Shown here: in pieces, positions 5,627-24,879 of the stretch
Layout: each line of letters starts with the position of its first letter
Position numbering within the stretch: the stretch's first letter is position 1
IMG/VR virus record: IMGVR_UViG_3300042567_001708
Span: 1-24,879 of that record
Direction: 5' to 3' (one strand)
DNA from: a virus
Length of the DNA: 24,879 nucleotides
Program-made: the position numbers and the translations under genes
The notes under the pieces: model-generated
Database searches by the model: none
Seen by the model: only the letters and a program-made list of their open reading frames with translations
What the model was told of the DNA's origin: nothing

Positions 5627-5845
5627 ATGAACACCTACGTTCGCACCCCCAACCCTCCAGTAGTCCGCGTCGAGATCCCCACCGGGTTCTGCGCGTTCTT
5701 GGATAAGACCGGCAAGATCTGCCTGGGCATCAAGGAATTCACCAAACACGGCTACTCCTGGTCCGTGGTCCCGCCGATCACGAAGCCCACGCGCGCGGAG
5801 ATTGACGCCGAGCTCGCAGCTCGCGGCATCGCGCAGCCGGCCTAA
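5627..5845 (+). CDS. Hypothetical protein, 72 aa, between tail fibre and terminase
   Basis: This product is unrecognised. The start MNTYVRTPNPPVVRVEIP lies 6 bases after the tail fibre stop, and the stop overlaps the terminase start (TAATG), so it is in a tight rightward unit. The N-terminal half looks like beta strands (VVRVEIPTGFCAFLDKTGKICLGI) with two Cys residues 10 apart. The C-terminus is a short helix (TRAEIDAELAARGIA). It could be a fibre chaperone or a structural accessory because of its neighbours, but nothing in the sequence proves that. It shows no helix-turn-helix, so it does not look like a small terminase. Confidence 0.7.
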   Translation: MNTYVRTPNPPVVRVEIPTGFCAFLDKTGKICLGIKEFTKHGYSWSVVPPITKPTRAEIDAELAARGIAQPA

Positions 5846-7413: not shown

Positions 7414-7428
7414 TAACACTTTAAGCAA

Positions 7429-9564: not shown

Positions 9565-9580
9565 TTGACTTTATTCCCCC

Positions 9581-10642
9581 ATGAGCGAACATACCAACGT
9601 GCCAGAGACGCTAAACCAGACAGACTCGAACTCGTCGTCCGAGCCCACCAACCTACAACCGGTGCAGGAAACTGCGCCTATTGAGAATAATCAGCATGAG
9701 GTGTCACAGGCTGAGCAGGGTTCTCCAGACGCTAATATTTCCGCAGATCCGTCTGCTGCGGGCGACACGGACGCTAAAAAGAAGGCCACCCTATTAGACG
9801 TTGTAAAAAGCGTTGCTAACAAGGGCAAGCCTGACTCGGACTCGTCCACTGAGGGGGAGCAGCCGGAAACTGCCGATGGGAAAGACGCCGATGCTGTTGG
9901 CAAGGACGCACAGCAGCAGAAGGTAGACCCCAATAAGCAGGCCGAAAAGCTGCCATTCCACAACCATCCGCGCTGGCGCGAGATGATCACCGAACGCGAC
10001 GCCATGAAACCCAAGGCGGAGCAGTACGACAAGATCACTACATTCATGACCTCTAACGGCCTCACCCCTGAGGAGATGGCCGAAGGAATGGGAATAATGG
10101 CGCTAATGAAGCAGAACCCAGTCGAGGCCTATAAGGTCTTGAAAGCTCACACCGACAGCTTGGCCAAGTTTGCCGGCGAGGAGCTTCCAGAGGATATTCG
10201 ATCCAAGCTGGATGATGGCTTCATTGATAGCGAGTCCGCCAAAGAACTTGCACGCTTCAAAGCGCAGCAGGAGTTCGAGCAGGCTCGCCAGCAGGAGCAG
10301 ATGGTTCGCCAACAACAGTATCAGCAAGAGGTCGGCCGCAAGCAGATCCATGATGCAGTTTCGGCGTGGGAGGCAACTGAGAAGGCCAGAGATCCGGACT
10401 GGTCCAAGAAATACGAGATGGTAATGGAGCGAGCCTCGGTGCTCATTCAGAACGGTCAGCCCAGTAACCCGCAGCAAGCCGTCGAGTTCGCCAAGCGCGC
10501 GCTCGCCGACGTAAATGCGCGTCTCCGGCCCCTTTCTGGACGTTCGATCGGACTCCGCAATCCCACCAGCTCCATGTCGTCCGCCAGCGCCACGCCGGTC
10601 CCGCGTTCTCTTGAGGACGCTGTTCGGCTGGCAATTCAGTAA
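9581..10642 (+). CDS. Capsid scaffolding protein, 353 aa
   Basis: Guides assembly of the capsid protein into a prohead and is normally removed before or during packaging. The assignment is from position between portal and capsid protein and from composition. The first 110 residues are polar, acidic, Ser/Asp/Glu/Gln-rich and likely disordered. LPFHNHPRWREMITERD (about 124-141) is a stretch typical of podovirus scaffold proteins. A long helical, Gln-rich region follows (KAQQEFEQARQQEQMVRQQQ) and suggests a coiled coil. The C-terminus (RPLSGRSIGLRNPTSS, then LEDAVRLAIQ) is basic and then a short helix, as expected for the coat-binding end. No protease domain is seen. Confidence 0.8.
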   Translation: MSEHTNVPETLNQTDSNSSSEPTNLQPVQETAPIENNQHEVSQAEQGSPDANISADPSAAGDTDAKKKATLLDVVKSVANKGKPDSDSSTEGEQPETADGKDADAVGKDAQQQKVDPNKQAEKLPFHNHPRWREMITERDAMKPKAEQYDKITTFMTSNGLTPEEMAEGMGIMALMKQNPVEAYKVLKAHTDSLAKFAGEELPEDIRSKLDDGFIDSESAKELARFKAQQEFEQARQQEQMVRQQQYQQEVGRKQIHDAVSAWEATEKARDPDWSKKYEMVMERASVLIQNGQPSNPQQAVEFAKRALADVNARLRPLSGRSIGLRNPTSSMSSASATPVPRSLEDAVRLAIQ

Positions 10643-10664
10643 CTCCTAAGCACAAACAACTACC
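10643..10664 (+). promoter_or_regulatory. A/C-rich, SD-less leader of the capsid gene
   Basis: The 22 bases before the capsid ATG read CTCCTAAGCACAAACAACTACC, with hardly any G and no Shine-Dalgarno match. A very similar word (CACAAACTAACTACAACC) precedes the gp14-like gene at 16224. Because the capsid gene must be translated strongly, this leader is probably an efficient SD-independent initiation site. Confidence 0.4.
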
Positions 10665-11744
10665 ATGGCCTTCACCACCGGCGAACTCGAAAACATCGCC
10701 AACTCCGCCCTTGATTTCTACGTCAAGGGCGACGCTATGGCCCAAACCATCCAGAATAAGCCCCTGCTCAACCTTCTCACGAAGCGCCAGCAGACCTTCC
10801 CTGGCGGTAAGGGTTATATCGACCTCCCCATCGTGTTTGACTACACGACTACGATCCAGGGTTATACCCATAACCAGACCGTTAGCTACCAGAACCCGGC
10901 CAATACGAAGCGTATCCGCTTCCCTTGGGCCGAACTGCACGCCGGTCTGTCCGTGACCTTCACGGAACTGAAGCATGACGGTATCTCCGTCACCGACTCC
11001 GCCACCGGCGAGTCTACCTCCAAGCACTCCAACCGCGATATCACGGTCTTGACCAACATTCTGAAGGCCAAGATGGATGACATGGCGGAAGGCTGGGCTC
11101 GTGGCTTCAACACGATGCTTTGGCTCGATGGTACCCAGCAGGCTAACGTCTTTGCTGGTATCTCGGCCTACATCCGCCCTGACGCCTCGATCACTGGCGG
11201 TACGGACCTCAATGCCACCGGCACCACCGGCGGTATCGACCGCGCTCTCCAGCCGGCTTGGCGCAATCGCGCTGCCAAGTGGACCTACACCACCGGCTCG
11301 ACCAACATCATCGACGGCCTCCGTTCGGAGATCCGCCAGCTCACCCGCTTCGGCGGCAAGCCCGGCACGATCGTCTGCGGTTCCGGCTTCCTCCAGAAGC
11401 TCGAAAAGGAAGTCCATTCCAAGGGTCTTTACACCCAGTCTGGCTTCTCCAAGGGTTTCGATGTGTCGATCGGCACGATCAGCCTCCAGGGCATCGGCGA
11501 GTTCATGTACGACCCGACCCTCGACCAGATCGAAGGCTACGCCTCCGGCGAAACCACCCGCACCAACTACGCCTATGTCCTCGATAACGAGGCCATGCAG
11601 CTGTACGTCATGGACGGCGAGGACAAGAAGACCCACAACCCGGCCCGCCCGGAAAACGTCTACGCGATCTACAAGTCGATGACGTGGACCGGTGGTACGG
11701 TCGCCAAGCGCCTCAACAGCTCTGGCGTGTACGTCGCCGCCTAA
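10665..11744 (+). CDS. Major capsid protein (HK97-type), 359 aa
   Basis: Main shell protein. The assignment rests on position after the scaffold, length, and family-like sequence: an N-terminal MAFTTGELENIANSALDFYVKG arm, an elongated-loop region (FPGGKGYIDLPIVFDYTTTIQGY), the long spine helix (LTNILKAKMDDMAEGWARGFNTMLW, residues about 128-152), and a C-terminal A-domain with beta strands (GTIVCGSGFLQKLEKEV). No delta domain or protease is attached, consistent with a separate scaffold. Codon use is more strongly biased to C-ending codons than in neighbouring genes, as expected for the most highly expressed gene. It is followed closely by an intrinsic terminator. Confidence 0.9.
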   Translation: MAFTTGELENIANSALDFYVKGDAMAQTIQNKPLLNLLTKRQQTFPGGKGYIDLPIVFDYTTTIQGYTHNQTVSYQNPANTKRIRFPWAELHAGLSVTFTELKHDGISVTDSATGESTSKHSNRDITVLTNILKAKMDDMAEGWARGFNTMLWLDGTQQANVFAGISAYIRPDASITGGTDLNATGTTGGIDRALQPAWRNRAAKWTYTTGSTNIIDGLRSEIRQLTRFGGKPGTIVCGSGFLQKLEKEVHSKGLYTQSGFSKGFDVSIGTISLQGIGEFMYDPTLDQIEGYASGETTRTNYAYVLDNEAMQLYVMDGEDKKTHNPARPENVYAIYKSMTWTGGTVAKRLNSSGVYVAA

Positions 11745-11763
11745 GCGGTCTTGACCTAATACG

Positions 11764-11795
11764 AGGGCCCCTCTGGAAACGGAGGGGCCCTTTTT
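11764..11795 (+). terminator. Intrinsic terminator after the capsid gene
   Basis: AGGGCCCCTC (11764-11773) pairs perfectly with GAGGGGCCCT (11782-11791) around an 8-base loop (TGGAAACG), followed directly by a T-run (11791-11795). It lies 20 bases after the capsid stop and ahead of the next gene in the same direction, so it probably reduces rather than abolishes read-through. That would give extra capsid mRNA relative to tail genes. Confidence 0.85.
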
Positions 11796-11835
11796 ATTGT
11801 TGCGGAATTGGCCGAGTGGGGGACACTACCTGCGT

Positions 11836-12150
11836 ATGCAAACCGCCATCGTTGAAATCATGCTCCAGGGCGACATGTTGAACACTGTCACCAAGCGAGT
11901 TTCCGCGGCCGAGGTTCCTGTTATCCGATCCATTCACGGCGCTGACTCCGTGGTGAAGTTCTCGGAATACGAGGTTTCCGACGCCAATAACGCCGAGGAA
12001 ATTGAGCGCCTCGAACGTGTCTACGGCCCCGCCGTCCGTCTGGTCTACACCGGCCATTCCCCTCGCTTGATCACCAGCTTCGCCGAGTGCGGCGTCGAGG
12101 CCCCTGCGCCTGTCGTCGAGAAGAAGTCCAAGCTCCTAAAGGACAACTAA
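11836..12150 (+). CDS. Small conserved-position protein after the capsid gene, 104 aa
   Basis: Function not known. The ATG (MQTAIVEIMLQGDMLNT) is preferred over a TTG 13 codons upstream, which would lie at the edge of the terminator. The protein appears as an alpha/beta fold: TAIVEIML strand, VPVIRSIHGADSVVKFSEYEV, then an acidic helix (AEEIERLERVYG). It ends in a Lys-rich tail (VVEKKSKLLKDN). Short proteins of this kind often sit between the capsid and adaptor genes in podovirus operons and may be head-completion or decoration proteins, but this is inferred from position. It is one base apart from the next gene. Confidence 0.7.
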   Translation: MQTAIVEIMLQGDMLNTVTKRVSAAEVPVIRSIHGADSVVKFSEYEVSDANNAEEIERLERVYGPAVRLVYTGHSPRLITSFAECGVEAPAPVVEKKSKLLKDN

Positions 12151-12151
12151 G

Positions 12152-12853
12152 ATGGCACGAGGAACGACCCTTCTTGAGCTGCGGGACATGCTCCGCGCCG
12201 AGATCGGCGCTTCTCCTAACGTCGGTATGGGGGTCAATACCATTGAGCAGTATGACCACCTTCTACGCCGCCAGCAGCAACGTCTCTGGGCCGATCACGA
12301 TTGGGATTTCGCCTACATTGAACGAGACGAACCGCTGCTGGCCGGCCAGCGTTATTACACCTTTGATAACGAGATAGACTCCGACAACATCGTTAGCGCC
12401 CACCTGCGCTATGGCGATATCTGGCATAATCTGGAATACGGCATCGGGCCGCAGCAGTATAACTTCCAAGACTCAGACATGGCCGTAAACCAGTCCGAGC
12501 CTTGCGTCCGCTGGCGCCACTGGGAAGGCAATCAGTTCGAGGTCTGGCCTGTGCCGAGCAGCAATAGCCAAAAGATCCGGTTTAAGGCCATTAAGAAGCT
12601 TAATCCGCTTATTGCAGTAAGTGACCGAGCTGAGCTCGACGACAATCTTATCGTGCTCTTTGCGGCCGCAGAGATCCTCGCGCGAACAAAAGCTGCTGAC
12701 GCCCAGGCAAAGCTTGCTCAGGCCAACACTCACTACGCCAAGATGAAGGGTAAGGGCATGAAGTACGACCGCTTTATCTACGGCGGCGGCCTCGATCGAG
12801 GCGAGCGACTCCGTATCATCGGTGGTCGATACACCCGAGATGATCGCTCCTAA
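12152..12853 (+). CDS. Head-tail adaptor protein, 233 aa (T7 gp11 position)
   Basis: Predicted to form the ring that joins the portal to the tail nozzle. It starts MARGTTLLELRDMLRAEIG, with a helical N-terminal half (YDHLLRRQQQRLWADHDWDF), a beta-rich middle (LAGQRYYTFDNEIDSDNIVSAHL, FEVWPVPSSNSQKIRF) and a helical C-terminal part (LIVLFAAAEILARTKAADAQAKLAQANTHY). This helix/strand/helix layout and its place directly before a tail nozzle gene match podovirus adaptor or tail tubular A proteins. The length is within the range of that group. The stop overlaps the start of the next gene (TAATG). Confidence 0.75.
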   Translation: MARGTTLLELRDMLRAEIGASPNVGMGVNTIEQYDHLLRRQQQRLWADHDWDFAYIERDEPLLAGQRYYTFDNEIDSDNIVSAHLRYGDIWHNLEYGIGPQQYNFQDSDMAVNQSEPCVRWRHWEGNQFEVWPVPSSNSQKIRFKAIKKLNPLIAVSDRAELDDNLIVLFAAAEILARTKAADAQAKLAQANTHYAKMKGKGMKYDRFIYGGGLDRGERLRIIGGRYTRDDRS

Positions 12854-15726
12854 TGCCGTATATCGTCGTCGAAAACTTCAAGGGAGGCCTTGATACCCGC
12901 CGGCACAAGCTGGCATCAGCTCCAGGCACTCTGACGCGGCTTCAGAACGCGCATATTACGCGCGGGGGTGAGGTTGAAAAGCGAAAGGCGATCAAACTAA
13001 AGCACACGCTTCCGGCCGGCACATTCGGGATGGAGACGAGCGTAAACACGATCTACGTCTTTGGCTCGATTGAATACACTCAACAGATGATGCCGCATGG
13101 CGTCACCTACCAGAGACTCCAGAGCCCGACAGGTGCTGCCATGACCGAAGTGGTCTATTCCACTGTCTACGGCGGCAAGCCATTCGTGATCGCAAGGTTT
13201 GATGACGGAAAGCAGTTTCCGTTCTGGGACGGCGCCTTTATCACTGACTGGAACTCTGGCATCGTCACCGCAGCGATGGTCAATAACGCCGGCATAGCCG
13301 AGCACCTAAGGTCTGTCTTCTTTTACAAAAATGCCGAAAACGAACAATACTCGTGCAGCGCGATCGGCAATAAGGTCCGCGTTACAGGCCCTACCGGAAA
13401 GACTTTTGAGGGAAGTCTTTATAAGAACTCAAACCCGGCGGTCAAAGGGACTGTCGTTTCCGAGGCCAAGGTCGAGACTCCCTCGGTCCAGGCACAAGGG
13501 TCTTTCCTCCTGACCGGAGGATCGGCTTCAGTAAAAGCCTCTGCCACATACGCGCTTCGTCAGCATTATTACGAAAACCTGCCCAATGCCGTAGGTGTCT
13601 GGGTTGGTGACGGTGCTGCCGAGGTAAAGGAGCTGCTTGGATTTAATGCACCTATTCCTGAGCCGATAACTCGATCAGGACTGAGCACTACGTCTGGATC
13701 TTCCGTTATTACCGGAATTAGCTTTGGAGGTTGGCAGGCCCTATCTGTCGGAATGAGCGTGTCCGGAAGCGGCATACCAAGTGGCGCAAAGATTGTATCC
13801 ATACAGGGATCCTTGCCTCACGACATAACAATTAGCGAACCTGCTACTGATACGGCCACAGACCTGACGCTTACATTTCTTGCTCCTCAGATAGCTTCGA
13901 TAGAAGGATTTGGAGCGTGGAGCATGGCTGGCGGCATAGGCGGAGATCCGGGCCAGCGATATGCGGCAGCCTTTGCGTTCTATGTGAACGCAAACACGGC
14001 GATATCAGGATACACGGCAATCTACTCTCATGGCGGCGGCGGTTGGAACGCGCGAGATCCGGGCAGCTGGACTCTGTATGCTCCTGAAAACCTGCATGAG
14101 ACTGCCAATGGGAAAGATGTTTGGATAGAGTTTAAAAGTCAGCCTGCTTGGCCCGGGACCACAGGCGGAAACCCAGGCGATAACTTCTTTGATTACGCTC
14201 AGATAATCCCGAGTCCTTACTACCGAACAGGAGAAGATCAGACTATTCCAAATGGAAGATATCTGATGAGAACGCTTGGGTACTCTGCTGGTCAGCTTGC
14301 CGGAGGTACGTTCAACGGAGTATCGAGCGTCAAGGTCGATGGCGTCGAAGTGCTCGGCGAGAGAGTCGCATGGAAAACGTCAAACAGCCAGACGGCTCTT
14401 GATATCGTAACTCAGATAAACAATTTCGTATCAACGACAGAGTATGTGGCATCGGTAAAAGATAGCACCCGCATCATACTTACTGCCACGACAGGAACAG
14501 GTGAGTCCGTTAATGGAAGAACCATAAATGCCACCACGGTTGGCGACGCAATCGTTACTTCTTTTGTGGCGTTTGCCGGCGGGAAAAATGTCGTCGCAGG
14601 ATCCCCGCGCGTGATGGATTTCACGATTGATGGCACATTTACGATCGGAGACAGGTACTCGATAGCGATAACTGACCCCGCAAGTCCTGACCAGCCATAC
14701 CAATTTGGCGCAACGCGGGTATCTGGAAAAATCCCAGCATTTTCAGCAACCTACAAGGGCAAGGAGTATGCAGCCGTAGGTTCTACGCTTTTCTTCTCCG
14801 CCCTAAACGATGCGACAGAGTGGGGTGTCTACGACGTCGGCTCCGGGTTTATCGACATGTCCAACAACTTTGGCGGCCGAGAAGACCTGTCTGGTATCGG
14901 CTTCTACCAGAACTCGGTGGCCGTGTTCAGCAAGAGAAGCGTCCAGATGTGGTACTTTGACCCTGATCCGAGCGTCAATGCTCAGAGTCAGGTCTTGGAT
15001 AACACCGGCTGCGTAGCCCCAGGCAGCGTAATGTCGGTCGGATCGGTGGACCTTTTCTACCTTTCCTACAACGGCGTTAGGTCGCTTCGCGCGCGCGACA
15101 GCACCGACTCTGCCTACGCCAACGATATCGGCTCTGCCGTGGATGAGATACTGATCGCCCACATGGCGACCCTGACGGAAGAACAGATTTACAAGTCAAA
15201 GTCCATCATCGAGCCTACCGACGGCCGATACTGGATAGCGATAGGCGGAAAGCTTTTTGTCCTTTCATCCTTCTCTGGATCAGGGATCAACGCATGGTCT
15301 GAGTATACAACCGGATACCAGATAGACAATATGTGCGTTTTCAGCAATAACGTCTACATCCGGTCTGGAAACAGCATCTATAAATACGGTGGAGATACAG
15401 GAAACGAGTATGACGCCAGCAAGGTAGTGGTTGAAATGCCTTACCTTGACGCCAACAAGGCTGCCACCTTCAAGTATGTGAACGGCGTGGACCTTACCTG
15501 CGAGGGGCAGTGGAAGATCGAGCTCGGCTTCGACTACACCAACCCCGATGCGCGAGATGAAATAGCGACGGTAGACCAGCCCTCTTTTGCCCTTGGACGC
15601 ATCACGGCGACAGGAATGGGTACGCATATCGGCCCAAGGCTAATAAGCTCCTACCTTGGCTACGCAAAGCTGGCCAATTTCATCCTGCACTACGACGATC
15701 AACACTCTAAACACGAGGCAGGCTGA
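12853..15726 (+). CDS. Tail tubular protein B / nozzle-like protein, 957 aa (T7 gp12 position)
   Basis: Predicted to form the hexameric tail nozzle, the end of the DNA channel. The N-terminus (MPYIVVENFKGGLDTRRHK, then GTLTRLQNAHITRGGEVEKR) is the typical opening of this family. The last 350 residues give the beta-propeller signature (GATRVSGKIPAFSATYKGKEY, NSVAVFSKRSVQMWYFDPDP, LFYLSYNGVRSLRARD). It is longer than T7 gp12 (794 aa). Residues about 273-600 hold an additional beta-rich part (TTSGSSVITGISFGG, LSVGMSVSGSGIPSGAK) whose codons use more GGA, ATA and AGA than the flanks, suggesting a modular insertion. It overlaps the next gene by one base (TGATG). Confidence 0.85.
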   Translation: MPYIVVENFKGGLDTRRHKLASAPGTLTRLQNAHITRGGEVEKRKAIKLKHTLPAGTFGMETSVNTIYVFGSIEYTQQMMPHGVTYQRLQSPTGAAMTEVVYSTVYGGKPFVIARFDDGKQFPFWDGAFITDWNSGIVTAAMVNNAGIAEHLRSVFFYKNAENEQYSCSAIGNKVRVTGPTGKTFEGSLYKNSNPAVKGTVVSEAKVETPSVQAQGSFLLTGGSASVKASATYALRQHYYENLPNAVGVWVGDGAAEVKELLGFNAPIPEPITRSGLSTTSGSSVITGISFGGWQALSVGMSVSGSGIPSGAKIVSIQGSLPHDITISEPATDTATDLTLTFLAPQIASIEGFGAWSMAGGIGGDPGQRYAAAFAFYVNANTAISGYTAIYSHGGGGWNARDPGSWTLYAPENLHETANGKDVWIEFKSQPAWPGTTGGNPGDNFFDYAQIIPSPYYRTGEDQTIPNGRYLMRTLGYSAGQLAGGTFNGVSSVKVDGVEVLGERVAWKTSNSQTALDIVTQINNFVSTTEYVASVKDSTRIILTATTGTGESVNGRTINATTVGDAIVTSFVAFAGGKNVVAGSPRVMDFTIDGTFTIGDRYSIAITDPASPDQPYQFGATRVSGKIPAFSATYKGKEYAAVGSTLFFSALNDATEWGVYDVGSGFIDMSNNFGGREDLSGIGFYQNSVAVFSKRSVQMWYFDPDPSVNAQSQVLDNTGCVAPGSVMSVGSVDLFYLSYNGVRSLRARDSTDSAYANDIGSAVDEILIAHMATLTEEQIYKSKSIIEPTDGRYWIAIGGKLFVLSSFSGSGINAWSEYTTGYQIDNMCVFSNNVYIRSGNSIYKYGGDTGNEYDASKVVVEMPYLDANKAATFKYVNGVDLTCEGQWKIELGFDYTNPDARDEIATVDQPSFALGRITATGMGTHIGPRLISSYLGYAKLANFILHYDDQHSKHEAG

Positions 15727-16184
15727 TGAAATTGGCTTACCTGAATGAGTCAGACCTGCTGTATGTCGCCGACAATATGCGCGAAATCGACAAAAAGGAG
15801 GTCTACGCTACCAGATGGGACGAAAATCCTGCAACTTTGGTCGATAGCATCCTGTCGAACGGCCGTTTTGGCTGGGTAGCCGGCGGAGAAGATGGCATCC
15901 CGATAGCTGCTTTCGGGGCAGTCCCGATGTGGCCAGGCGTGTGGCAGGTCTGGATGTTCGCAACCGACCGCTGGCCTGAGGTTTCAGTCGGCGTAACCAA
16001 GTTCATCAAGCGCATCATGATCCCTTCGGTCAAGTCGGCCGACTGGCATCGAGCTGAATGTCGATCCATAGAGGGCCACGACGTCGCTCACCGATGGCTT
16101 GAGATGCTCGGAGCCACCCGAGAAGGCGCACTGCCTTACTTCGGCAAAAATAAGGACACTTTCCACGTTTATAGCTGGACCTAA
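15726..16184 (+). CDS. gp13-like protein with GNAT-type fold, 152 aa
   Basis: It lies exactly where T7-type phages carry gp13 (internal virion protein A). The sequence has the outline of a GNAT acetyltransferase fold: MKLAYLNESDLLYVADNM, a central FGWVAGGEDGIPIAAFGAVP strand pair, VWQVWMFATDRWPEV, and a C-terminal HRWLEMLGATREGALPYFGKN. The last resembles the GNAT end (helix, LGF, EG). The acetyl-CoA loop (Q/RxxGxG/A) is not convincing, so it may be a degenerate, structural member that no longer acetylates. In T7 gp13 is not retained in the mature ejection channel as a main component, so an assembly role is possible. Translation is coupled to the nozzle gene. Confidence 0.75.
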   Translation: MKLAYLNESDLLYVADNMREIDKKEVYATRWDENPATLVDSILSNGRFGWVAGGEDGIPIAAFGAVPMWPGVWQVWMFATDRWPEVSVGVTKFIKRIMIPSVKSADWHRAECRSIEGHDVAHRWLEMLGATREGALPYFGKNKDTFHVYSWT

Positions 16185-16223
16185 CCGGCGATAAACACAA
16201 ACTAACTACAACCAAATACGAAC
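16185..16223 (+). promoter_or_regulatory. A/C-rich, SD-less leader of the gp14-like gene
   Basis: This 39-base gap has AAACACAAACTAACTACAACCAAA, almost without G or T runs, before ATGTGC. It shares CACAAAC and AACTACAACC/ACTACC words with the capsid leader at 10643-10664. There is no Shine-Dalgarno sequence. Confidence 0.4.
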
Positions 16224-16841
16224 ATGTGCGGCGGAGGAGGATCAGATGCTTATGCGGCCCAAGCTCGGGCTGATGAGGTGGCTCGACAAGAGCGCATCAA
16301 GTCAGGCATGTCGCAGATCGACCAGCGATTTGCCGGCTTCAATGATGACTTCTTCAAGAAGCGCAGCGACGAGTATATGGCGGTGATGAACCCGCAGCTG
16401 GTTAAGCAGTATCGTCAGGCAAATGAAGGCCTCGCGTACTCTCTCGCGCGAAGCGGCCTTACCGACTCCAGCGAACGAGCCAAGAGCGAGGGTATTCTCA
16501 AGGGCCAGCTCGATGCCGGCCGCACTGAGGTCGCAAATCAGGCCATTGATCGCACGAATGAACAGCGACAATCGGTAGAGCAGGGCAAGACGGCCCTAAT
16601 CCAGCAGCTAAACGCCACAGGCGACGCAAATGCCGTCGCAAATCAGGCGCTAAATTCCGCCAATCGCCTTGCTGGCCAGCAATCCTATTCACTTCTTGGC
16701 AACATGTTTGCCGGCGGCATGGGGCTTGTCTCTGACGCCAGGGCTGCCAAGCAGTACGACCGAAATGCGGTCGGACTGGATGGATACAAGAACCTCTTTG
16801 GCTTTGGCACAGGCAAAGAAAAAGTAACTAAGACCGACTAA
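16224..16841 (+). CDS. Internal virion protein, MCGGGG type, 205 aa (T7 gp14 position)
   Basis: Probable internal (core) virion protein, ejected to help form the DNA channel across the cell envelope. It starts MCGGGGSDAYAAQARADEVARQ, a known opening of a podovirus family. Next come a long helix region (DQRFAGFNDDFFKKRSDEYM, YRQANEGLAYSLARSGLTDSS), a helical, Gln/Ala-rich middle (QAIDRTNEQRQSVEQGKTALIQQ) and a Gly-rich hydrophobic stretch (LLGNMFAGGMGLVSD). The order nozzle, gp13-like, this gene, and then larger proteins copies T7. Cys2 with a short Gly run is striking and could be modified, but no lipobox-bearing signal peptide is present. Confidence 0.8.
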   Translation: MCGGGGSDAYAAQARADEVARQERIKSGMSQIDQRFAGFNDDFFKKRSDEYMAVMNPQLVKQYRQANEGLAYSLARSGLTDSSERAKSEGILKGQLDAGRTEVANQAIDRTNEQRQSVEQGKTALIQQLNATGDANAVANQALNSANRLAGQQSYSLLGNMFAGGMGLVSDARAAKQYDRNAVGLDGYKNLFGFGTGKEKVTKTD

Positions 16842-16842
16842 C

Positions 16843-17616
16843 ATGTGTAACCCTCTTGCTATTGGTATGTCGATGGTGGCCGCCGGCACTTACGCTCAAA
16901 GCGAAGGTGCCAAGAAGGCGCAGAAGGCCATAAACTCGGCACGCGAAGCCGAGCGCATCCGCCAAATGGGATTAAAGGGTGACTCTGACGTTCTTTTCAA
17001 GGAGTCCCTTGCGAAACAGGGCACTGAAGGAGACGAACCCAAGACCAGCAAGGCTATTGGCGACCGATTGGCTGCCATGGATCGAAATGTCACCTCAGCT
17101 CCGACTGTTGCTCCGATAAAATCACAGGGCGACACGCCCCAGATCGTCGCCGACGAGTCTGCGCAGCGAAAAGACGCTGCCGCAACCGGGGCTTCTATCG
17201 AAGGACGAAATAAAGCCATAGCTTCAGGATTTGGAGACACTCAGGTAGGCAACGCCTTGATGAACCTCGATTTCAGCCGACGCCAGAACATGATCGCCGA
17301 CTTCTCGCGCGGATCTTCTGGCGTGCTTGGCAGTGAAGTTGAAGCCGCCTCACACAAGGGAGACTCCCTTAAGGGCTGGGGCCAGGCGCTATCAGCCGCA
17401 GGCTCAATGGTTGGAATGTATGGTGCGATGCAGCCAGCAACCGCTGCTGCCGCTGCTGCTCCTGCTGCCGCAGCCCCTGTTGCCACGGCCGCTGGCACTG
17501 CCGCTGCTGGAACTGCTGCCGCTGCGGCTCCCGCTGCTGCTTGGTATGCCAATCCTTATCTCTGGGGTGGCGCTGCTATTGGCGCCGGAGCCCTGGCATC
17601 ACGACGCAAAGCATAA
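16843..17616 (+). CDS. Second MC-starting internal virion protein, 257 aa
   Basis: It starts MCNPLAIGMSMVAAGTYAQSEG, a hydrophobic N-terminal helix with Cys2 as in the preceding gene, which fits the gp14-like internal virion family. Residues 20-50 are a charged helix (KKAQKAINSAREAERIRQMG). The middle is polar. The C-terminal quarter is an Ala/Pro/Thr-rich linker (AAAAAAPAAAAPVATAAGT region, about 195-235) followed by a hydrophobic segment YLWGGAAIGAGALASRRKA, a probable transmembrane or amphipathic end with a basic tail. A channel-forming role during ejection is inferred from this and the position. It is one base apart from the previous gene. A separate origin is not excluded. Confidence 0.75.
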   Translation: MCNPLAIGMSMVAAGTYAQSEGAKKAQKAINSAREAERIRQMGLKGDSDVLFKESLAKQGTEGDEPKTSKAIGDRLAAMDRNVTSAPTVAPIKSQGDTPQIVADESAQRKDAAATGASIEGRNKAIASGFGDTQVGNALMNLDFSRRQNMIADFSRGSSGVLGSEVEAASHKGDSLKGWGQALSAAGSMVGMYGAMQPATAAAAAAPAAAAPVATAAGTAAAGTAAAAAPAAAWYANPYLWGGAAIGAGALASRRKA

Positions 17617-17622
17617 ACACTT

Positions 17623-20124
17623 ATGGCTGACCTCTCTTGGATAGATCCTCTCTTTAAACACGCGCGATCCGCGTTCGGACTCGACCCTAAGCAGGCCGCC
17701 GAAGGCCAGCTCATGCAGAAGCATGGCGACCTTTACACCGCCCAGACTGAAACCGAGAAGTATCGACTTGGCCAACTGCTGCCTGCTCAAAAGGGCGTCT
17801 TTGATGCCGATGCTGGGCACAAGAAAGCACTTGGAGTTAAGGTTGGCGAGGAGACTCGCGGCATAAAGCACACAAACGACTCGGCACAAAGGCTTTCAGA
17901 GCTTCTTTCTGATCCTACAAATTACATCACTACGCAAGATGGCCGACGAGTCCCTGACGTAAACAAGATACACGGAATAATCGCCGCAAGCGCTGGAGCT
18001 GGCGGTGCGGCTGGAGTTAAGAATGTTCCTGGCATCATCGGCGGATTTAATCTTCAGGCCAACCCTCTGAGCCCAGGCGCTAACCTTGCTGCCGGAGGCA
18101 CCAACGCGACGGCGGGAGCAGGTATGCTGAAGCCGATCCAGCTTAATCCTGACCAAACCCTGATCCAAAAAGATCCGCTTACCGGCCAGCCTATCACTGG
18201 TGCCCCGATGGCTGCGCCCAAGGTGACGCTGCCGAACTTTGCTGGACCTATCACGGAGCCACTTGCTCCAAACGCTCAAGTTATCCCTCGCGGAAACATA
18301 TCAAACGAAGATCTCGCGGCCATACTCGCTCCCGGCAACAAGGCAGGCATGGATAAGGTCGGTATTGAGATGCCTCAGAGGGTGAACTCTAACCTTCCTT
18401 ACACTGCCCCAGCCAGCTCGACCAAGCTTCAGGTTGCCGACAAGAATAACGAAGCTGATCTCACTCAGGCCCTTTTGGATAACCAGACTAAGCTGGATAT
18501 TGCCATGGGTCGAAATGCGACAGCCAAGGAGATCGCAGACATACGCAAGGAAGGTCAAGAGATCGTCGCCCGCATACGCGCAGGCAAAGGAAAGGGTGCG
18601 TCTTCGTCTGGCGAAGCCGGCGTTGGTCAAGACGGAGGCGTGGCCCCGATAGACCTAAACCGCCTTGCTGACCGAGAGAAGGCCGCAACCGAGTATCTGG
18701 TTAATTCCTTTGGCAAGTCTGGCCATAACATAGACCCCAACCACGCTGCACTTCTTGCGGCGGCCGCAACCCAGTCCTTCCCTAACGATCCGGCCGGTAC
18801 GGCCATTCAGAAGTTCATGACGCAAAACGGCATAACCAGCGACACTGGTGGCTGGAGCCGTGTGGACTTCTCTCAGAATGGAAAGCCGATGGACTTTAAC
18901 GCCCTGCGCACCAAGCTTTTTGGCGCCCAACCGGGTCCTGCTGCTACTGCCACAGGCGCCCCAGGCACTCCTCTGACCGCCGACGGCAAGCCGGCCGACG
19001 GAAGCGTTGCTGGCGTCGTTGCAGGAGGATCAACTCCTGCTGGTGCGCCTGCCCCGAAGGCTGACGGATCAATAGAAATAGAAGGCATACCGTTCACACC
19101 GGGCTCAAATCTTGCCACCGAGCGCAAGCATGGTGACGAGTATACCGGCATTAGTAAAACGACAGGAAAGATCGAAACCCGATACTGGGACGCCGAGGCC
19201 CTTGGGGGTAAGGGTGGCTGGTCTGATACGCCTATCGGCGGCCGTCAGGAGGACTTTGATAAGGTGGACCAACTTGGTAAGGATCTAAACAGAGAGGGCG
19301 GCATGTTCACGAGGCCTCCTACCGCGGAAGAAAGCAGGACTGCCGAGGATGATATCCTAAAGCTCGCCTTGGAAAAGGGGGCTATAAGCAAGGAGGAATA
19401 TGATGCCGCAACCAAATTCGGAAAGGTAAGCGGATCAAAGAGATCTACCGCCGCTAAGGTGGTAGATAAGCTTAAGGCCATGGAGGGCGAGGAAGCAAAG
19501 CGCGACCCTCGTGTTAAGTCCTATGCAAAGGGTGATTTTCTTGATGATAAAGGCCTTCCTGATGATGCCATGGAGCTTGCAGAGCGACTCGGAATAGACC
19601 GTGAAGCCTACGGAATACCCAGTTATAAGGGCAAAATGACCACCGACTCAAGGGGCAGAAGGTACAGGGAAAGCACTCTTGGCGATCTCGGTGAGGCGTT
19701 TATTCAGAATGTCCCAGGTTCTTTATTCCTTCCGGGTTACAAGGATACCCAAGACAGGATGCACTCTGGACTAAAAGCCTTCTTTGCCGACGTATTGGCT
19801 GGAAAGGTTAAGACCTCTCCGCAGCCAAGGAACGATGTGCCTCCGGTAGCCGGCCCTGCCGGGTCAAAGACGGAAAAGGCCCCTGAGCTCCCTGCCGAAA
19901 CAAAGATAGAGCCCCCCTCTATTCCTAAGGGAGTTCCGACGCAGACAAAGCAAGAGTCTGTTCCTGTCGAAAAGGCAAAACCTGACACTAAGCCTGCCCC
20001 AAAGACCGTAGCCGAGATCGTGGCCCCGAAGAAAGAGCTGACCGACGAGGAGAAACGGATCCTGGCCGGCAAGGGATTTGGGAAGATCCAAAAGGACGAG
20101 GTAGCAGCCAAGCAGAAGAAGTAA
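17623..20124 (+). CDS. Large putative internal virion protein, 833 aa (T7 gp15 position)
   Basis: I do not recognise a domain. Position and size (T7 gp15 has about 747 residues) suggest an internal core protein ejected with the DNA. The N-terminal 90 residues are charged and helical (MADLSWIDPLFKHARSAFG). Residues 125-300 are Gly/Ala/Pro/Asn-rich (NPLSPGANLAAGGTNATAG), probably extended. A helical part follows (ALLDNQTKLDIAMGRNATAKEIADI). An SRVDFSQNGKPMDFNALRTKLFG block precedes a Pro/Gly-rich linker, and FLDDKGLPDDAMELAERLGIDREAYGIPSY lies near residue 650. The last 100 residues are Lys/Pro-rich (KPDTKPAPKTVAE) and likely disordered. The start follows CATAAACACTT without an SD. Confidence 0.75.
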   Translation: MADLSWIDPLFKHARSAFGLDPKQAAEGQLMQKHGDLYTAQTETEKYRLGQLLPAQKGVFDADAGHKKALGVKVGEETRGIKHTNDSAQRLSELLSDPTNYITTQDGRRVPDVNKIHGIIAASAGAGGAAGVKNVPGIIGGFNLQANPLSPGANLAAGGTNATAGAGMLKPIQLNPDQTLIQKDPLTGQPITGAPMAAPKVTLPNFAGPITEPLAPNAQVIPRGNISNEDLAAILAPGNKAGMDKVGIEMPQRVNSNLPYTAPASSTKLQVADKNNEADLTQALLDNQTKLDIAMGRNATAKEIADIRKEGQEIVARIRAGKGKGASSSGEAGVGQDGGVAPIDLNRLADREKAATEYLVNSFGKSGHNIDPNHAALLAAAATQSFPNDPAGTAIQKFMTQNGITSDTGGWSRVDFSQNGKPMDFNALRTKLFGAQPGPAATATGAPGTPLTADGKPADGSVAGVVAGGSTPAGAPAPKADGSIEIEGIPFTPGSNLATERKHGDEYTGISKTTGKIETRYWDAEALGGKGGWSDTPIGGRQEDFDKVDQLGKDLNREGGMFTRPPTAEESRTAEDDILKLALEKGAISKEEYDAATKFGKVSGSKRSTAAKVVDKLKAMEGEEAKRDPRVKSYAKGDFLDDKGLPDDAMELAERLGIDREAYGIPSYKGKMTTDSRGRRYRESTLGDLGEAFIQNVPGSLFLPGYKDTQDRMHSGLKAFFADVLAGKVKTSPQPRNDVPPVAGPAGSKTEKAPELPAETKIEPPSIPKGVPTQTKQESVPVEKAKPDTKPAPKTVAEIVAPKKELTDEEKRILAGKGFGKIQKDEVAAKQKK

Positions 20125-20163
20125 TTTTGTTGCCTCTGGCCGGGTTTTTGGGAAAGTCTCGTC

Positions 20164-23100
20164 ATGGGTATTATTCCTGACGACGAATTTCTCGTGCAGC
20201 CAAATAAGGCGCAAGAAGCCCCGCAAGCCCCTCAATCTGTCGGCCCGATCAAGAAGAACACGATCGCGGACGACGACTTCCTTGCTGTACCTAAAGACGC
20301 TATGCCTGGCATGGGCACTGCTGCCCTTTACGGCGCAGGAAGAAACATAATTCCTTCTCTTGGAGGCCTTCTTGCTGGCACTGTTGGCGGCGTTGGAGGC
20401 GGGCTTGTTGGTGGTCCTGCCGCCGCATACACGGCGCCTGCTGCTGCTTTTGCTGCTTCCACCGGAACCGCATACCTATTGGCAGAAGGGCAAAACGCTG
20501 TGTGGAAGCCGGGCTTGCGTGAACAACTCGCCGCCAGCAAAAACCCTAACACATATACTTGGATGGGCCTTGCTCCTGGCTTTGTCACTGGCAAGTTTAT
20601 CGACCCTAAGGCACTTGCCACTGGCGGCTTGAAGGCTGGCGCAAATGCGGCTGAGATCGCTGCTGCTAATGCTGTAAAGAGGGCTGCTCGTATTGAGCTC
20701 GCAACTGAGGTTGGCGGCGAACTTGGCGGCGATGTTGTTATCAACGCGCTTACCGGCCAAGAGCAAAACCTCGGTCAAAGTCTTGGAATGGCCCTTACCG
20801 AAGGTCTACTCCAAGGCCAACAGACTCGAGTTGGCAGGGCCATCTCTCAGTCTCCAATCAACCTTGCGCAGTATCTTACTACTCCGTCCGCACCGAAGCC
20901 CGCTACGCCGGTCACTCCAGGCATCCAAAGCGACATTCTCGCCGAAGCTCGCGGCGCAGTCGATATTCCTGCTGTCAATCCGAACGCCCCGATACCGCTT
21001 GGTCCGGATGGGCTTCCTGTTGCCACCCAAGGCCAGATCGCAGGTCAAAACGTACCTGCCGTAACGACCTCTACTCCGGCCGTCGCCACGCCTGCCGTGG
21101 CAACGCCTGCTGTCGCCACGCCTGCTGTCGCCACGCCGGCCACGGCTACACCTGCTGCCGCAGCAGCGGCTGCTCCGGCGGCGCCTGTCGCACGCCCGAG
21201 CGTCGAGCCCGGAACCGCCCCCGCCGTCGCAGTTGGCGCAGATGGTCGCGGCCAGGTTAGCTTTGTTCCGAACCACATACCTGCGCACGAAAACCTTGCC
21301 CCCGAGCAGCTGCGTGCAGCGCATGCGGCCATGGAGCCTGCCCAGGCTGCCAACAGCATTATCGCATTGAACGCGGAAGCCCATCGCCGCAACGGAAACA
21401 TCAAGCCAAGCGATCCTGCCTTCACCGAACGGATCCTTACACACACTGGCGTTGCTTTGCGCGATTTGGCTGCGAAGGACCAAGGACTTGCTATATCCAC
21501 AGGCGAAGGCCTGTCTCGGCTCATTGAAAGCCAGATCACGAAGGCAAAGAACAACCCTGAACAGAGTCCATATACGCCCGAACAGGTGTTTGAGATGGAA
21601 TATCGAAAGGGTCGAGTAGATGCAATCGTTGAACATCTCCGAAAGGGCGGAACAGAGCCCCTTCCGTACTCCGTTGCAGGCGTAACCGAATACGTCAAGA
21701 ACATGAAGTATTACGCCGGCAAGGATGCCGAGGTCGAAGCTGCAAGAAACACTCCTCCTTCCCCTGAGCAGGCTGCCGCTGAAGCCGGAGTGGATATCGG
21801 CGAGGTTGCTGTTAATTACGACACTAAGCGCTGGCAGGCTGACCCTAAGATGCCGAACGGAGGATCTGTCGTTCAAGACAAGGGCCAGGCTCCGATCGTT
21901 GAATACAATGGCCGTCTCATGGTCCTGCGAAATGTGAACGGAGTCCAGGTACCTTTCTACCTAAGCACCGGAGACGGCGGTAAGAAGGATGTTCCTTCCG
22001 GCAAGTGGTACCCATTCTTTGGTGTTGCGGACGGTTGGCTGAACAAGACAGGCGGCAAGGAGATGGCCAGCTATTACGGCCGAGCTGATCTGGCTGCCGT
22101 CGCAAGACAGCTCGATCGAACGATCGGAGATATCAGGCATCAGGCTGGCCGGGACAGGTTCCCGAAGGTCGGCAACAAGGATAGCTTTGCCCATATCAAT
22201 CAAGGCCTCACTCCTACTGGAAACGGAACGCCCGAAACTCGCCCTAAGCTTGAGGCGAACATGAAGAACCTCTTTGATCGCCTCGATGCCGCTGCCGCGC
22301 AGCGCAAGCCGAAGCCGGTCGCAGCTCAGCCTGACAATCCTGAAACCGGTCGTCCTCAGAACCCTGGAGATCACGAAAAGAAACTCAAGGACGCAGGATA
22401 CACTAAGTTTGAAGATGGATACATGAACCCTGAGGGTGACTACAAGATAGTCATAAAGGGAGACAAAGCCACGGCCGTATCTCTTGACGACACCTACGAC
22501 ATGCAGGGTAAGCCTATGCACAAGGCAGGAGAAACCATAAGCTATGTAGGAGGAGCCCACAGTCTTGCTGAAATAGACTCGCTGATCAGTGCTCTTTCAG
22601 GGAAAAAGAGAGACGCAACCTGGGTGTCTAAGAACGACGGAAGATCCCATCAGACAACGGACAAACACGGCCTCATAATAGCGCAAGGAGACAATTTCAT
22701 GATCCAGCGCGCTGCTGCTATCAAGAAGGATGGATCTATTCAGTCGTATGAGACTCTTGGATTTACCAAGACCCTTGAAGAAGCCAAGCAGCTGTTTAAC
22801 GACAAGCAGAGGGCCAAGAGCAAAGAAAAGGCATTGGAGCGCAGGCAGCAAGAAGCGGCCCGCCAAAGAAAACAGCAGGAAGCAAAGCCTGCCCCTAAGC
22901 CTGCCACGCCCGCCTCCGCCGAGCTCACGCCCGAAGCGGCCAAGCCTGCGCCTAAGCCGGCCGAGCCTAAGCCCTCAAAGCCCGCCAAGCCCCTAACCAA
23001 GAAGGAGCAGCGTGCTGCTGAGAAGAAGTCGAAGGAGGAAAAGGAAATCGCAGCGTCTACCGAAAGACACATGAAGTGGTGGCAGGGAGAAAACCCTAAC

Positions 23101-24879
23101 GCCGGAAAGGATGTAGTAGACGCATACAGGATGATAATGGAGAGGGAACACGGAGAGCCTGCCTCGGATGAACTTAAGGCTGCCTATAAAAAGGTAGATG
23201 ATTACGAGATACTAAATAACGAAAATGCAAAAAAGGTAGTCTCTCACCCAGGCGTAGAAAGATACGAAAGGACTACTTTTGATGAAGATGGCGTAGTCGA
23301 AAGTGGCAGCGTCATTCACTTGAAAGAAGGCTACACCTTGGACGTTGGGCCTGATAGTGGATATCAATACCAGTCATTCAACAGGGATGATGATGGCAAC
23401 TTTGAAGGTAACTCTTTTCATGTAAATAACGATGCTGATGCCGCATGGCATCTTGATACGATTGTTAAAAAGTCCGATCTTCCAGAGATAACGGCAAGGC
23501 GCAAGGTGGAGCGCGCAGAAGAAGAGCTTAATTCTTGGAAAAATGCGATGGCTTCTGTTCGGGCTAAGGTTGAAAAGCTACGATCCAGCAAGAAAAAGGA
23601 AGACATTGACTTTGTTACCAGGGCTGAAGCAGGACGTTCCAATGCTGAAGCGGAGCTTAAGGACCGCGAGCAAGAGGCCTTAGATGCTAAGTCTGATTAC
23701 GAGTCTAAGTTCGGAAGGTACGAGAAGAAGGTTCAAGAGCCTGAACCGGAAGGCCGTGACCCGGCAGAAGAAGAACCAGATCCTGATGAAGATCCGGAGG
23801 ATGTAGCCGAGCGCGAGGCGCTATTTGAGGCCGACCAAGAGGCAAAGGACAAATCTGAAAGGGAGACAAACCTCGCCAAGAGCGACCAGGAGATATACGA
23901 CGAGCTTAGGGCCAAGGATAAGGCCAAGTGGAAGAAGGGCAGCGATAAGTCGATAGCCGACGCAGAGAAACGGCTCAAGGCCGCATCAGATCAGCTCGAA
24001 AAGGCCAACAAGTCTGGAAAGGTTAAGCAAAAGCAGCTCAATAAGCTCATCGAAACCAAGGCACTCAGAGAGTATGAGTTGTCATACCTGACCGACCCCG
24101 ATCACAAGTCTCCTTCTGATGTTCAGTTTGAAGAAATGAAAGCGGCAGGATTTGGTCCTGTCAGGGATATGTATGGCACTTTTGATGTCACAGTAGGGAC
24201 TGATTACATTAACAAAGACAAGTCCTACAAGATAACGCCAGTGCCCCAGGGCGACTCCTTCGCCAGCAAGAAGAAGTACCTTGTGTCAAAAGTTGAGTTG
24301 ATAGAAAAAGATGGGTTCGTAAGGACCGAAAAAGTAAGCTGGTTCGACAGTCTTGATGAAGCCGTTAAGGCTACCAAGTCTGGACAAGCCAGCAGACAGC
24401 CTGCGCCGGCGACTGGAAGCGTAGATCCTTCCGTAATAGGAGATGATTTCCATGAGTCAGTCTATGAGATGGGATACTCCGATACTCATTATCCTAACGT
24501 CATAGAAAGCCCCGATGGTTATACAATAGGACCTGACTGGGATAAAATTGAAGATCTGAAAGCCGGCGAAAAAATAAAAGGATGGAAGGTTCTTGATGCA
24601 GACGAACAAAGCATTGGCACATACAAGACTCTCAAAGAGGCGCTTGATGCCGTTTCAGAGCTCGACGGAAACCTTGAAGGCAAAAAGGAGGGAGATGGCA
24701 CCTCACAGGAGCCTGCTTTTAGCGGAGAAAGGGGTGATGTTGAGAACGCACGCCTATACAGAGAGAGTGCGCATGGCGGAGCTGAAGCAATACCTGTGGA
24801 TAGGCAGCTTCCTAAATCAATGGACCTGGACTTCGGGCTTCGCGGAGGAAAGCACCCTAACGATGCCTACTATTACAGG
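20164..24879 (+). CDS. Giant modular protein at T7 gp16 position, at least 1572 aa, cut by window edge
   Basis: Open from ATG at 20164 to the right edge with no stop (1572 codons). It begins MGIIPDDEFLVQP, with DDEFL echoed by DDDFLAVP. Residues about 62-105 are a Gly/Ala-rich hydrophobic segment (GGLLAGTVGGVGGGLVGG) that could insert in a membrane. PAVAT repeats occupy 305-329. Residues 540-660 form a compact domain (YNGRLMVLRNVNGVQVPFY, VPSGKWYPFFGVADGWLN) that I do not recognise. Modules of similar layout end in FTKTLEEAKQLF (about 868-879), WFDSLDEAVKA (1393-1403) and YKTLKEALDAV (1488-1498). KPAPKPA linkers and a charged coiled-coil region (about 1110-1310) separate them. A polyvalent virion protein ejected with DNA is likely. 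No lytic transglycosylase motif is seen so far. Confidence 0.85.
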   Translation, partial: MGIIPDDEFLVQPNKAQEAPQAPQSVGPIKKNTIADDDFLAVPKDAMPGMGTAALYGAGRNIIPSLGGLLAGTVGGVGGGLVGGPAAAYTAPAAAFAASTGTAYLLAEGQNAVWKPGLREQLAASKNPNTYTWMGLAPGFVTGKFIDPKALATGGLKAGANAAEIAAANAVKRAARIELATEVGGELGGDVVINALTGQEQNLGQSLGMALTEGLLQGQQTRVGRAISQSPINLAQYLTTPSAPKPATPVTPGIQSDILAEARGAVDIPAVNPNAPIPLGPDGLPVATQGQIAGQNVPAVTTSTPAVATPAVATPAVATPAVATPATATPAAAAAAAPAAPVARPSVEPGTAPAVAVGADGRGQVSFVPNHIPAHENLAPEQLRAAHAAMEPAQAANSIIALNAEAHRRNGNIKPSDPAFTERILTHTGVALRDLAAKDQGLAISTGEGLSRLIESQITKAKNNPEQSPYTPEQVFEMEYRKGRVDAIVEHLRKGGTEPLPYSVAGVTEYVKNMKYYAGKDAEVEAARNTPPSPEQAAAEAGVDIGEVAVNYDTKRWQADPKMPNGGSVVQDKGQAPIVEYNGRLMVLRNVNGVQVPFYLSTGDGGKKDVPSGKWYPFFGVADGWLNKTGGKEMASYYGRADLAAVARQLDRTIGDIRHQAGRDRFPKVGNKDSFAHINQGLTPTGNGTPETRPKLEANMKNLFDRLDAAAAQRKPKPVAAQPDNPETGRPQNPGDHEKKLKDAGYTKFEDGYMNPEGDYKIVIKGDKATAVSLDDTYDMQGKPMHKAGETISYVGGAHSLAEIDSLISALSGKKRDATWVSKNDGRSHQTTDKHGLIIAQGDNFMIQRAAAIKKDGSIQSYETLGFTKTLEEAKQLFNDKQRAKSKEKALERRQQEAARQRKQQEAKPAPKPATPASAELTPEAAKPAPKPAEPKPSKPAKPLTKKEQRAAEKKSKEEKEIAASTERHMKWWQGENPNAGKDVVDAYRMIMEREHGEPASDELKAAYKKVDDYEILNNENAKKVVSHPGVERYERTTFDEDGVVESGSVIHLKEGYTLDVGPDSGYQYQSFNRDDDGNFEGNSFHVNNDADAAWHLDTIVKKSDLPEITARRKVERAEEELNSWKNAMASVRAKVEKLRSSKKKEDIDFVTRAEAGRSNAEAELKDREQEALDAKSDYESKFGRYEKKVQEPEPEGRDPAEEEPDPDEDPEDVAEREALFEADQEAKDKSERETNLAKSDQEIYDELRAKDKAKWKKGSDKSIADAEKRLKAASDQLEKANKSGKVKQKQLNKLIETKALREYELSYLTDPDHKSPSDVQFEEMKAAGFGPVRDMYGTFDVTVGTDYINKDKSYKITPVPQGDSFASKKKYLVSKVELIEKDGFVRTEKVSWFDSLDEAVKATKSGQASRQPAPATGSVDPSVIGDDFHESVYEMGYSDTHYPNVIESPDGYTIGPDWDKIEDLKAGEKIKGWKVLDADEQSIGTYKTLKEALDAVSELDGNLEGKKEGDGTSQEPAFSGERGDVENARLYRESAHGGAEAIPVDRQLPKSMDLDFGLRGGKHPNDAYYYR
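21076..21150 (+). repeat. Tandem 15-base repeats encoding PAVAT
   Basis: Five consecutive 15-base units inside the giant gene: four encode PAVAT and one PATAT. The units differ mainly at third positions (CCGGCCGTCGCCACG, CCTGCCGTGGCAACG, CCTGCTGTCGCCACG twice, CCGGCCACGGCTACA). They form a Pro/Ala/Thr linker after the N-terminal hydrophobic domain. Confidence 0.75.

What the first reader, a model, noticed from the sequence alone, without database searches (positions are those of the whole stretch)
20164..24879. Giant modular ejected-protein candidate with a recurring unrecognised domain
The frame is open for at least 1572 codons. Three stretches share a layout: a start with a (D/A)GY or GF turn (AGYTKFEDGYM, AAGFGPVRDMY, MGYSDTHYPN), beta-like strands, and an end in TLEEAK/SLDEAV/TLKEAL helices. 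A further compact domain lies at residues 540-660 (VPFYLSTGDGG, KWYPFFGVADGWLN). Large multi-domain phage proteins delivered with DNA are known as polyvalent proteins and often carry effector domains. These modules could be such effectors or binding units, and the missing C-terminal part may carry the enzyme.
Basis: partly seen in the sequence, partly recalled or inferred. Interest (0 to 1): 0.55.

Follow-up and report, generated by a model that had tools for sequence, protein, structure and literature searches.

The report
Giant phage-ejected protein, unnamed conserved domain
This is the first third of a giant phage protein that is probably packed in the virus particle and injected into the host cell; it carries a conserved domain with no name so far, which also turns up as small stand-alone phage proteins and in large, some of them probably exported, proteins of a group of small-genome bacteria.

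Summary
The open frame is real: 1572 codons, cut by the contig end. Contig L002 holds the intact gene, 4050 codons; its further part has a sub-threshold ART-PolyVal match and a HExxH motif. The gene follows a late structural block, in the slot that in Microcystis phage Mae-Yong1326-1 holds a 2441-residue giant with LPD1. The polyvalent-protein reading is well supported; packaging and ejection were not shown. 'Three copies of one domain' is only partly right: two stretches share about 55 residues (hhalign E 8e-4), the third is not significant. The 540-710 domain is the best find: no Pfam or NCBIfam match, no confident PDB fold match, 88 IMG/VR relatives, presence in MS/MS-annotated structural proteins of Cellulophaga phages, free-standing phage proteins of about 180-240 residues, and 27 of 96 genomes of one order of small-genome Alphaproteobacteria; of ten such proteins read, six start signal-peptide-like. 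Window and L002 differ at 4 of 10,464 bases, then diverge abruptly inside this gene at 23817.

The parts
20164..24879 (+). 5' 1572 codons of the giant gene (intact homologue 4050 codons in L002:6812-18964)
20311..20493 (+). residues 50-110: Gly/Ala-rich hydrophobic segment near the N-terminus, possibly membrane-interacting (by eye)
   Evidence: sequence; similar Gly/Ala-rich stretches seen by eye in giants printed; inference
21079..21141 (+). 15-bp tandem repeat encoding a TPAVA linker
21781..22293 (+). residues 540-710: the conserved unnamed domain (R584, P597, F598, Y599, S601, K607, K614, W615, G620, W625, K628, Y638, N679)
23446..23733 (+). residues 1095-1190: predicted long helices, coiled-coil-like
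   Evidence: pLDDT of blocks mostly 60-80
23817..23817 (.). point (residue 1218, end of an acidic linker) where identity to L002 drops from 4 differences in 10,464 bases to about 40-56%
24757..24879 (+). residues 1532-1572: block conserved with L002 (78% DNA; 15 synonymous and 6 non-synonymous codon changes of 41 codons)
5845..20124 (+). late structural block ahead of the giant gene: large terminase, portal, scaffold, major capsid protein, tail and DNA-ejection-like genes, an acetyltransferase

Best explanation
The frame is the N-terminal part of a phage polyvalent protein: a late-expressed giant that is packed in the head and ejected with the DNA. Gly/Ala-rich and helical regions help it cross the envelope; an internal zincin-like peptidase (motif seen in L002) may cut it into pieces; the pieces, including an ADP-ribosyltransferase-like domain, act on the host at the start of infection. 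The 540-710 domain is one of these working modules, most likely a ligand-binding or enzymatic effector unit rather than a mere packaging handle. The stretches after residue 1218 are small alpha/beta spacer or binding modules in a fast-changing, recombining part. Shown: gene order, homology, domain and motif content of relatives, the conserved polar/aromatic residue set, the break in identity. Inferred: packaging, ejection, self-cleavage, and any target.
For: Intact homologue of 4050 aa with ART-PolyVal and HExxH. HExx(x)H in 22 of 31 non-redundant intact giants with the domain against 1.3 expected from shuffles. LPD38, a domain the 2017 paper lists only for phage-type polyvalent proteins (passage seen), in 9 of 19 giants; ART-PolyVal 2, LPD39 2, SLT 1 of 19. 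Syntenic late slot in Mae-Yong1326-1, whose giant matches the C-terminal part of L002 by BLASTP (E 7e-13), has two HExxH sites and LPD1 at E 1.8e-12. The domain lies in proteins of Cellulophaga phages phi4:1 and phi14:2 annotated as structural from MS/MS. Domain as effector: 29 columns conserved at 85% or more in 54 sequences, 21 columns shared with bacterial copies, and bacterial copies in proteins of which six of ten read have a signal-peptide-like start and six of ten have the domain at the C-terminal end (four have both).
Against: Packaging or ejection is not shown for this phage. L002's ART match is below Pfam's cut-off and LPD38 was not found in L002. The window part itself has no Pfam or NCBIfam match. 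The BLASTP link between L002's C-terminal part and the Mae-Yong1326-1 giant was not recovered by phmmer at E 0.01, and neither method linked L002's C-terminal 800 residues to any other domain-bearing giant. 9 of 31 giants lack the HExx(x)H motif, among them L017, the phi4:1 protein. The set of giants was picked by the domain, so its being their common core is partly by construction. Y616, P617 and N627, nearly invariant in viruses, are not kept in the bacterial copies at the level used. No confident solved-structure match to the domain model was found, so its activity is a guess.
Confidence: 0.7

Rival explanations
1. The 540-710 domain is a virion docking or packaging module that loads ejected proteins into the head, and has no action of its own in the host.
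For: Present in MS/MS-annotated structural proteins; 14 of 22 stand-alone copies carry an MK(H/Y)LK.Y..FE-like leader, which recalls T4 internal-protein targeting sequences (from memory, not tested); one such contig, L064, has tail sheath and tail tube genes.
Against: Found in 27 of 96 genomes of one bacterial order; of ten proteins read there six have signal-peptide-like starts, where no virion is known. The prophage status of those loci was not tested.
Confidence: 0.25
2. The giant is an ordinary DNA-ejection channel protein (T7 gp16-like or N4 vRNAP-like cargo) whose domains are structural; 'effectors' are overread.
For: Position after ejection-like genes (phrog_4287 DNA ejection protein E 0.003 for the 205-aa gene, phrog_1471 pilot protein E 0.035 for the 833-aa gene).
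Against: ART-PolyVal, SLT, LPD and HExxH content of relatives. Not exclusive: polyvalent proteins can also help ejection.
Confidence: 0.2
3. The three stretches are three copies of one recurring domain.
For: 816-885 with stretch 2: z 5.9, hhalign E 8e-4; stretch 3 with the L002 copy of stretch 2: z 4.1, 4 of 1000; end motif three times.
Against: Stretch 1-3 and 2-3 not significant; HMM of the shared half reaches stretch 3 only over 13 residues at -1.1 bits; stretches 1 and 3 modelled below pLDDT 50, so uninformative.
Confidence: 0.2
4. The break at 23817 is an assembly chimera, not a natural crossover.
For: The window is a virus record and L002 an IMG/VR contig; identity falls sharply and the window ends about 1 kb later.
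Against: The frame stays open through the break in both; the divergent part is homologous (35% in stretch 2), and the last 124 bases are 78% identical with 15 synonymous against 6 non-synonymous codon changes, as for a real related allele.
Confidence: 0.25

Closest known systems
Phage-type polyvalent proteins (Iyer et al. 2017, PMC5512222; abstract, sections 6, 8, 9, 29, 32 and passages read)
   Same: Giant late-gene protein; relatives combine ART-PolyVal, zincin-like HExxH, SLT and LPD domains; slot beside virion genes
   Different: Carries a 540-710 domain that no Pfam model, LPDs included, matched; delivery not shown
Giant protein UUJ74515 of Microcystis phage Mae-Yong1326-1 (OP028995.1; PMC9503304, two passages seen)
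   Same: Same gene slot, C-terminal BLASTP match to L002 (E 7e-13; not recovered by phmmer), two HExxH sites, LPD1
   Different: No match to the 540-710 domain HMM; deposited as 'peptidoglycan transglycosylase', but Pfam gave no SLT at E 0.01
Cellulophaga phage phi4:1 gp038 and phi14:2 gp078 structural proteins
   Same: Carry the 540-710 domain (tblastn E 4e-7 for phi4:1; phi14:2 via phi4:1, E 3e-8, and BFVD Foldseek E 1e-3) and are annotated from virion MS/MS
   Different: 1957 and 1797 aa, no HExx(x)H; the profile HMM does not reach phi14:2
Bcep22-like giant protein, e.g. gp69 of Burkholderia phage JC1 (PMC9144972, one table passage seen)
   Same: Over 4400 aa with LPD38, LPD3 and a lytic-transglycosylase-like domain
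   Different: Not compared by sequence here
crAss001 cargo proteins (PMC10172136, passages seen)
   Same: Large proteins stored in capsid and tail, thought to be ejected before the DNA and partly unfolded
   Different: A comparison of mechanism only; no homology tested

Membership tests
Phage-type polyvalent proteins | Large multidomain protein encoded next to late virion genes | tested here: met
   4050 aa in L002; follows terminase, portal, MCP, tail and ejection-like genes
Phage-type polyvalent proteins | Two or more catalytic domains of unlike activity in one polypeptide | tested here: inconclusive
   L002: ART-PolyVal 24 bits (cut-off 31.2) and one HExxH; ART H and Y seen in the alignment, third residue unclear. 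Window part: no match
Phage-type polyvalent proteins | Known polyvalent-associated (LPD) domains | tested here: inconclusive
   No match in the window part or L002; LPD38 in 9 of 19, LPD39 in 2 of 19 giants sharing the 540-710 domain; LPD1 in the syntenic giant
Phage-type polyvalent proteins | Delivered into the host with the DNA | not testable with these tools
   Only MS/MS annotations of distant relatives
N4-like virion RNA polymerase | RNA polymerase module in the giant protein | tested here: inconclusive
   No RNAP family listed in Pfam, PHROGs or NCBIfam scans of the window protein or L002
LPD1-LPD40 (for the 540-710 domain) | Match to a curated LPD model at residues 540-710 | tested here: inconclusive
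   No Pfam match there in the window protein or L002; whether all 40 LPDs are in this Pfam copy was not checked
One recurring domain in three copies | Significant self-similarity among all three stretches | tested here: not met
   Only 816-885 with 1310-1405

The most novel reading that the evidence does not exclude
The 540-710 domain founds a new effector family used on both sides of a boundary: as a module of phage-ejected giants, as free-standing phage proteins, and as a working part, often the C-terminal one, of large exported proteins in one order of small-genome Alphaproteobacteria, perhaps exchanged between phages and these bacteria, and acting on a target met outside the producing cell.
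Probability: 0.3. Interest if true: 0.7.

Novelty: new member of a known kind. Interest (0 to 1): 0.45.

Why it matters
Polyvalent proteins are a store of unexplored phage effectors. A compact, highly conserved domain that occurs in giants, alone as a protein of about 180 residues, and in bacterial proteins is small enough to express and assay directly, so its function could be found without handling a 4000-residue protein. The sharp switch in the variable part of the gene between near-identical phages would show where such proteins exchange modules, if it is natural.

Tried and rejected
Whole-protein tblastn against 50,697 phage records found nothing at E 1e-5, and a PDB sequence search nothing at E 1. 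Domain tblastn against plasmids found nothing at E 0.1. Stretch 1 as query found only the L002 contig, as did the divergent end 23857-24879. The C-terminus of L002 found its own contig and one 6.9-kb contig. The domain model (mean pLDDT 78, pTM 0.77) had no Foldseek PDB hit at E 0.001 and a best VIA Z of 2.1; that is no proof of a new fold. The four best BFVD hits were large phage proteins, two counted at E 0.001 or better. The 776-residue model of residues 735-1510 (mean pLDDT 55) was only useful for stretch 2 and the helices; its VIA rows mostly cover the long helices. Neighbours of stand-alone copies (phrog_7595, SbcD, tail sheath, tail tube in L064; homing endonuclease in L049) gave the phage type, not a function. 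A tree of 54 domain copies clusters stand-alone copies more than chance (0 of 500 shuffles) but does not fix the number of gains or losses; 27 of 51 inner branches are open. The ART alignment of L002 to L014 and L015 did not settle the third catalytic residue. PADLOC was not searched. Literature searches. Three core peptide strings of the domain are in no held paper (0 papers), which does not exclude a description in other words.

Counts to read with care: the 88 IMG/VR relatives (80 kept) include the L002 contig and contigs; the 99 frames are redundant (54 after thinning, which also dropped copies under 75 residues); one search scanned 19 of the 54 intact frames; the bacterial proteins read are ten, from places I chose among the hits. 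Labels run 2 higher than true residue numbers; I use those. LPD38 in L002 was not tested by profile-profile comparison.

Full report
What is there. The window is a 24,879-base virus record. The last gene, 20164-24879 (+), is open for 1572 codons from ATG and is cut by the contig end. Pfam (E 1) and NCBIfam (E 0.1) give nothing in this part; PHROGs gives phrog_32390 (E 2e-6) at residues 581-629, a 1957-position profile, the length of the phi4:1 protein found later, and one weak match (E 0.19).

The rest of the gene. One other contig, IMGVR_UViG_3300042154_003041 (L002), holds the whole gene, 4050 codons. Its part beyond the window has an ART-PolyVal match at 2345-2434 (E 7.5e-5, 24 bits, below the curated 31.2), a HExxH site at 2650 and a second, ART-like stretch near 2913 seen by eye, with no significant BLAST match to the other ART stretches. 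Pfam LPD38 was not found in L002.

Context. The genes before it are terminase, portal, scaffold, capsid and tail genes, an acetyltransferase and ejection-like genes. TerL and MCP are closest to Microcystis phage Mae-Yong1326-1 and Rhizobium phage RHph_N65. Nine window genes from terminase to the 205-aa gene match Mae-Yong1326-1 genes in the same order, the 117-aa one weakly (E 0.002); the 257-aa and 833-aa genes gave no match at E 0.01. In that phage the slot after these genes holds a 2441-aa giant with two HExxH sites and LPD1 at E 1.8e-12. Its residues 1902-2221 match L002's C-terminal part by BLASTP (E 7e-13; a second piece E 5e-6), but phmmer did not report it at E 0.01, and neither method linked L002's last 800 residues to another domain-bearing giant. 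It does not match the 540-710 domain HMM. RHph_N65 shows no such giant in its annotation.

The 540-710 domain. A search with the window's domain found 14 loci; a search with an alignment of ten found 88 relatives, 80 kept. In phage records it was found in Cellulophaga phi4:1 and phi17:2 (7 records) and, through phi4:1, in crassvirus phi14:2, in proteins annotated as structural from MS/MS for phi4:1 and phi14:2. In phi14:2 it lies in gp078, next to gp077 of 2180 aa, which I recall as the virion RNA polymerase. In the loci held it occurs in 99 frames, 22 of them closed proteins of at most 260 aa. In 54 non-redundant copies R584, Y599, W615, Y616, P617, G620, W625, Y638 and L650 never vary (54 of 54) and N679 is 51 of 51. 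The AlphaFold2 model has a beta-rich first half and a helical second half (mean pLDDT 78), with no PDB match of note.

Giants with the domain. Of 31 non-redundant intact proteins of 1200 aa or more, 22 have HExx(x)H, where shuffles give 1.3. Of 19 scanned, LPD38 is in 9, ART-PolyVal in 2, LPD39 in 2, and SLT, DUF7178, RNase_T and DUF3990 in 1 each. These are marks of phage polyvalent proteins as described in PMC5512222 (abstract, sections 6, 8, 9, 29, 32 and passages read). The giants were chosen by the domain, so its conservation among them is partly by construction.

Bacteria. A genome scan found two small stand-alone copies, in an alphaproteobacterial MAG and in a MAG titled only 'bacterium'. 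In the order of the first, 27 of 96 genomes (0.5-1.1 Mb) match, the centre itself included; in the family of the second, 13 of 60 (overlapping sets); in 398 genomes of the phylum and 289 of the class only the centre matched. In ten loci read (nine taken by place from hits I chose, and L107) there are 11 copies in ten proteins. Six of 971 to 2546 aa start with a signal-peptide-like stretch (by eye); one of 1424 aa and two of about 420 aa do not; one is cut at its start by the locus edge. The domain lies at the C-terminal end in six of the ten, four of them among the six with a signal-like start; two others of those six have it further in. One protein has two copies. Whether these loci are prophages was not tested. 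This weakens the idea that the domain is only a virion handle.

The repeats. Self-BLAST finds none. Residues 816-885 and 1310-1405 share about 55 residues (z 5.9, 1 of 1000 shuffles; hhalign E 8e-4, probability 10). Stretch 3 relates to neither at a significant level, though it resembles the L002 form of stretch 2 weakly (z 4.1, 4 of 1000). One search tested 34 pairs, uncorrected. Stretch 2 is modelled with strands and a closing helix (block pLDDT 57-86); stretches 1 and 3 are mostly below 50.

The break. From 13353 to 23816 the window and L002 differ at 4 of 10,464 bases; from 23817, at the end of an acidic linker, identity falls to about 40-56%, and the last 124 bases are 78% identical. The reading frame is kept. 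A crossover with a related phage fits; an assembly chimera is not excluded.

Verdict. A polyvalent, probably ejected protein: well supported by relatives, delivery unproved. A new member of a known kind, with a widespread unnamed domain that is worth a study of its own.

Noticed in passing
window 23817-24756: Abrupt loss of DNA identity to L002 inside the giant gene after 10,464 bases with 4 differences.
   Followed up: partly
window 12853-15726: The 957-aa protein matches the Mae-Yong1326-1 'packaged DNA stabilization protein' at both ends only; about 490 residues (139-632) look inserted.
   Followed up: no
window 3230-5620: 796-aa frame with collagen-like Gly-X-Y repeats and Tyr/Gly-rich repeats just before the terminase gene.
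   Followed up: no
window 15726-16184: An acetyltransferase-like gene sits among structural genes and matches the N-acetyltransferase of Mae-Yong1326-1 (39% identity).
   Followed up: no
L049, L053, L055-L057, L064-L068, L070, L074, L075, L082: 14 of 22 stand-alone copies of the domain carry an MK(H/Y)LK(T/S/E)Y..FE-like leader, and some other frames on these contigs begin alike; it may be a packaging or cleavage leader.
   Followed up: partly
L086:9836-10549, L098:4326-4982: Stand-alone copies with a C2H2-like zinc-finger motif in front.
   Followed up: no
L110, L111, L113, L115, L117, L118: Large bacterial proteins with signal-peptide-like starts, Cys-rich parts and the domain (at the C-terminal end in L111, L113, L115, L117), some with ART-like or HExxH stretches by eye.
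   Followed up: partly
L092:1712-5587, L099:8915-10390: Proteins in which the domain follows a basic motif of the type ENFADGxxPGRxG.
   Followed up: no
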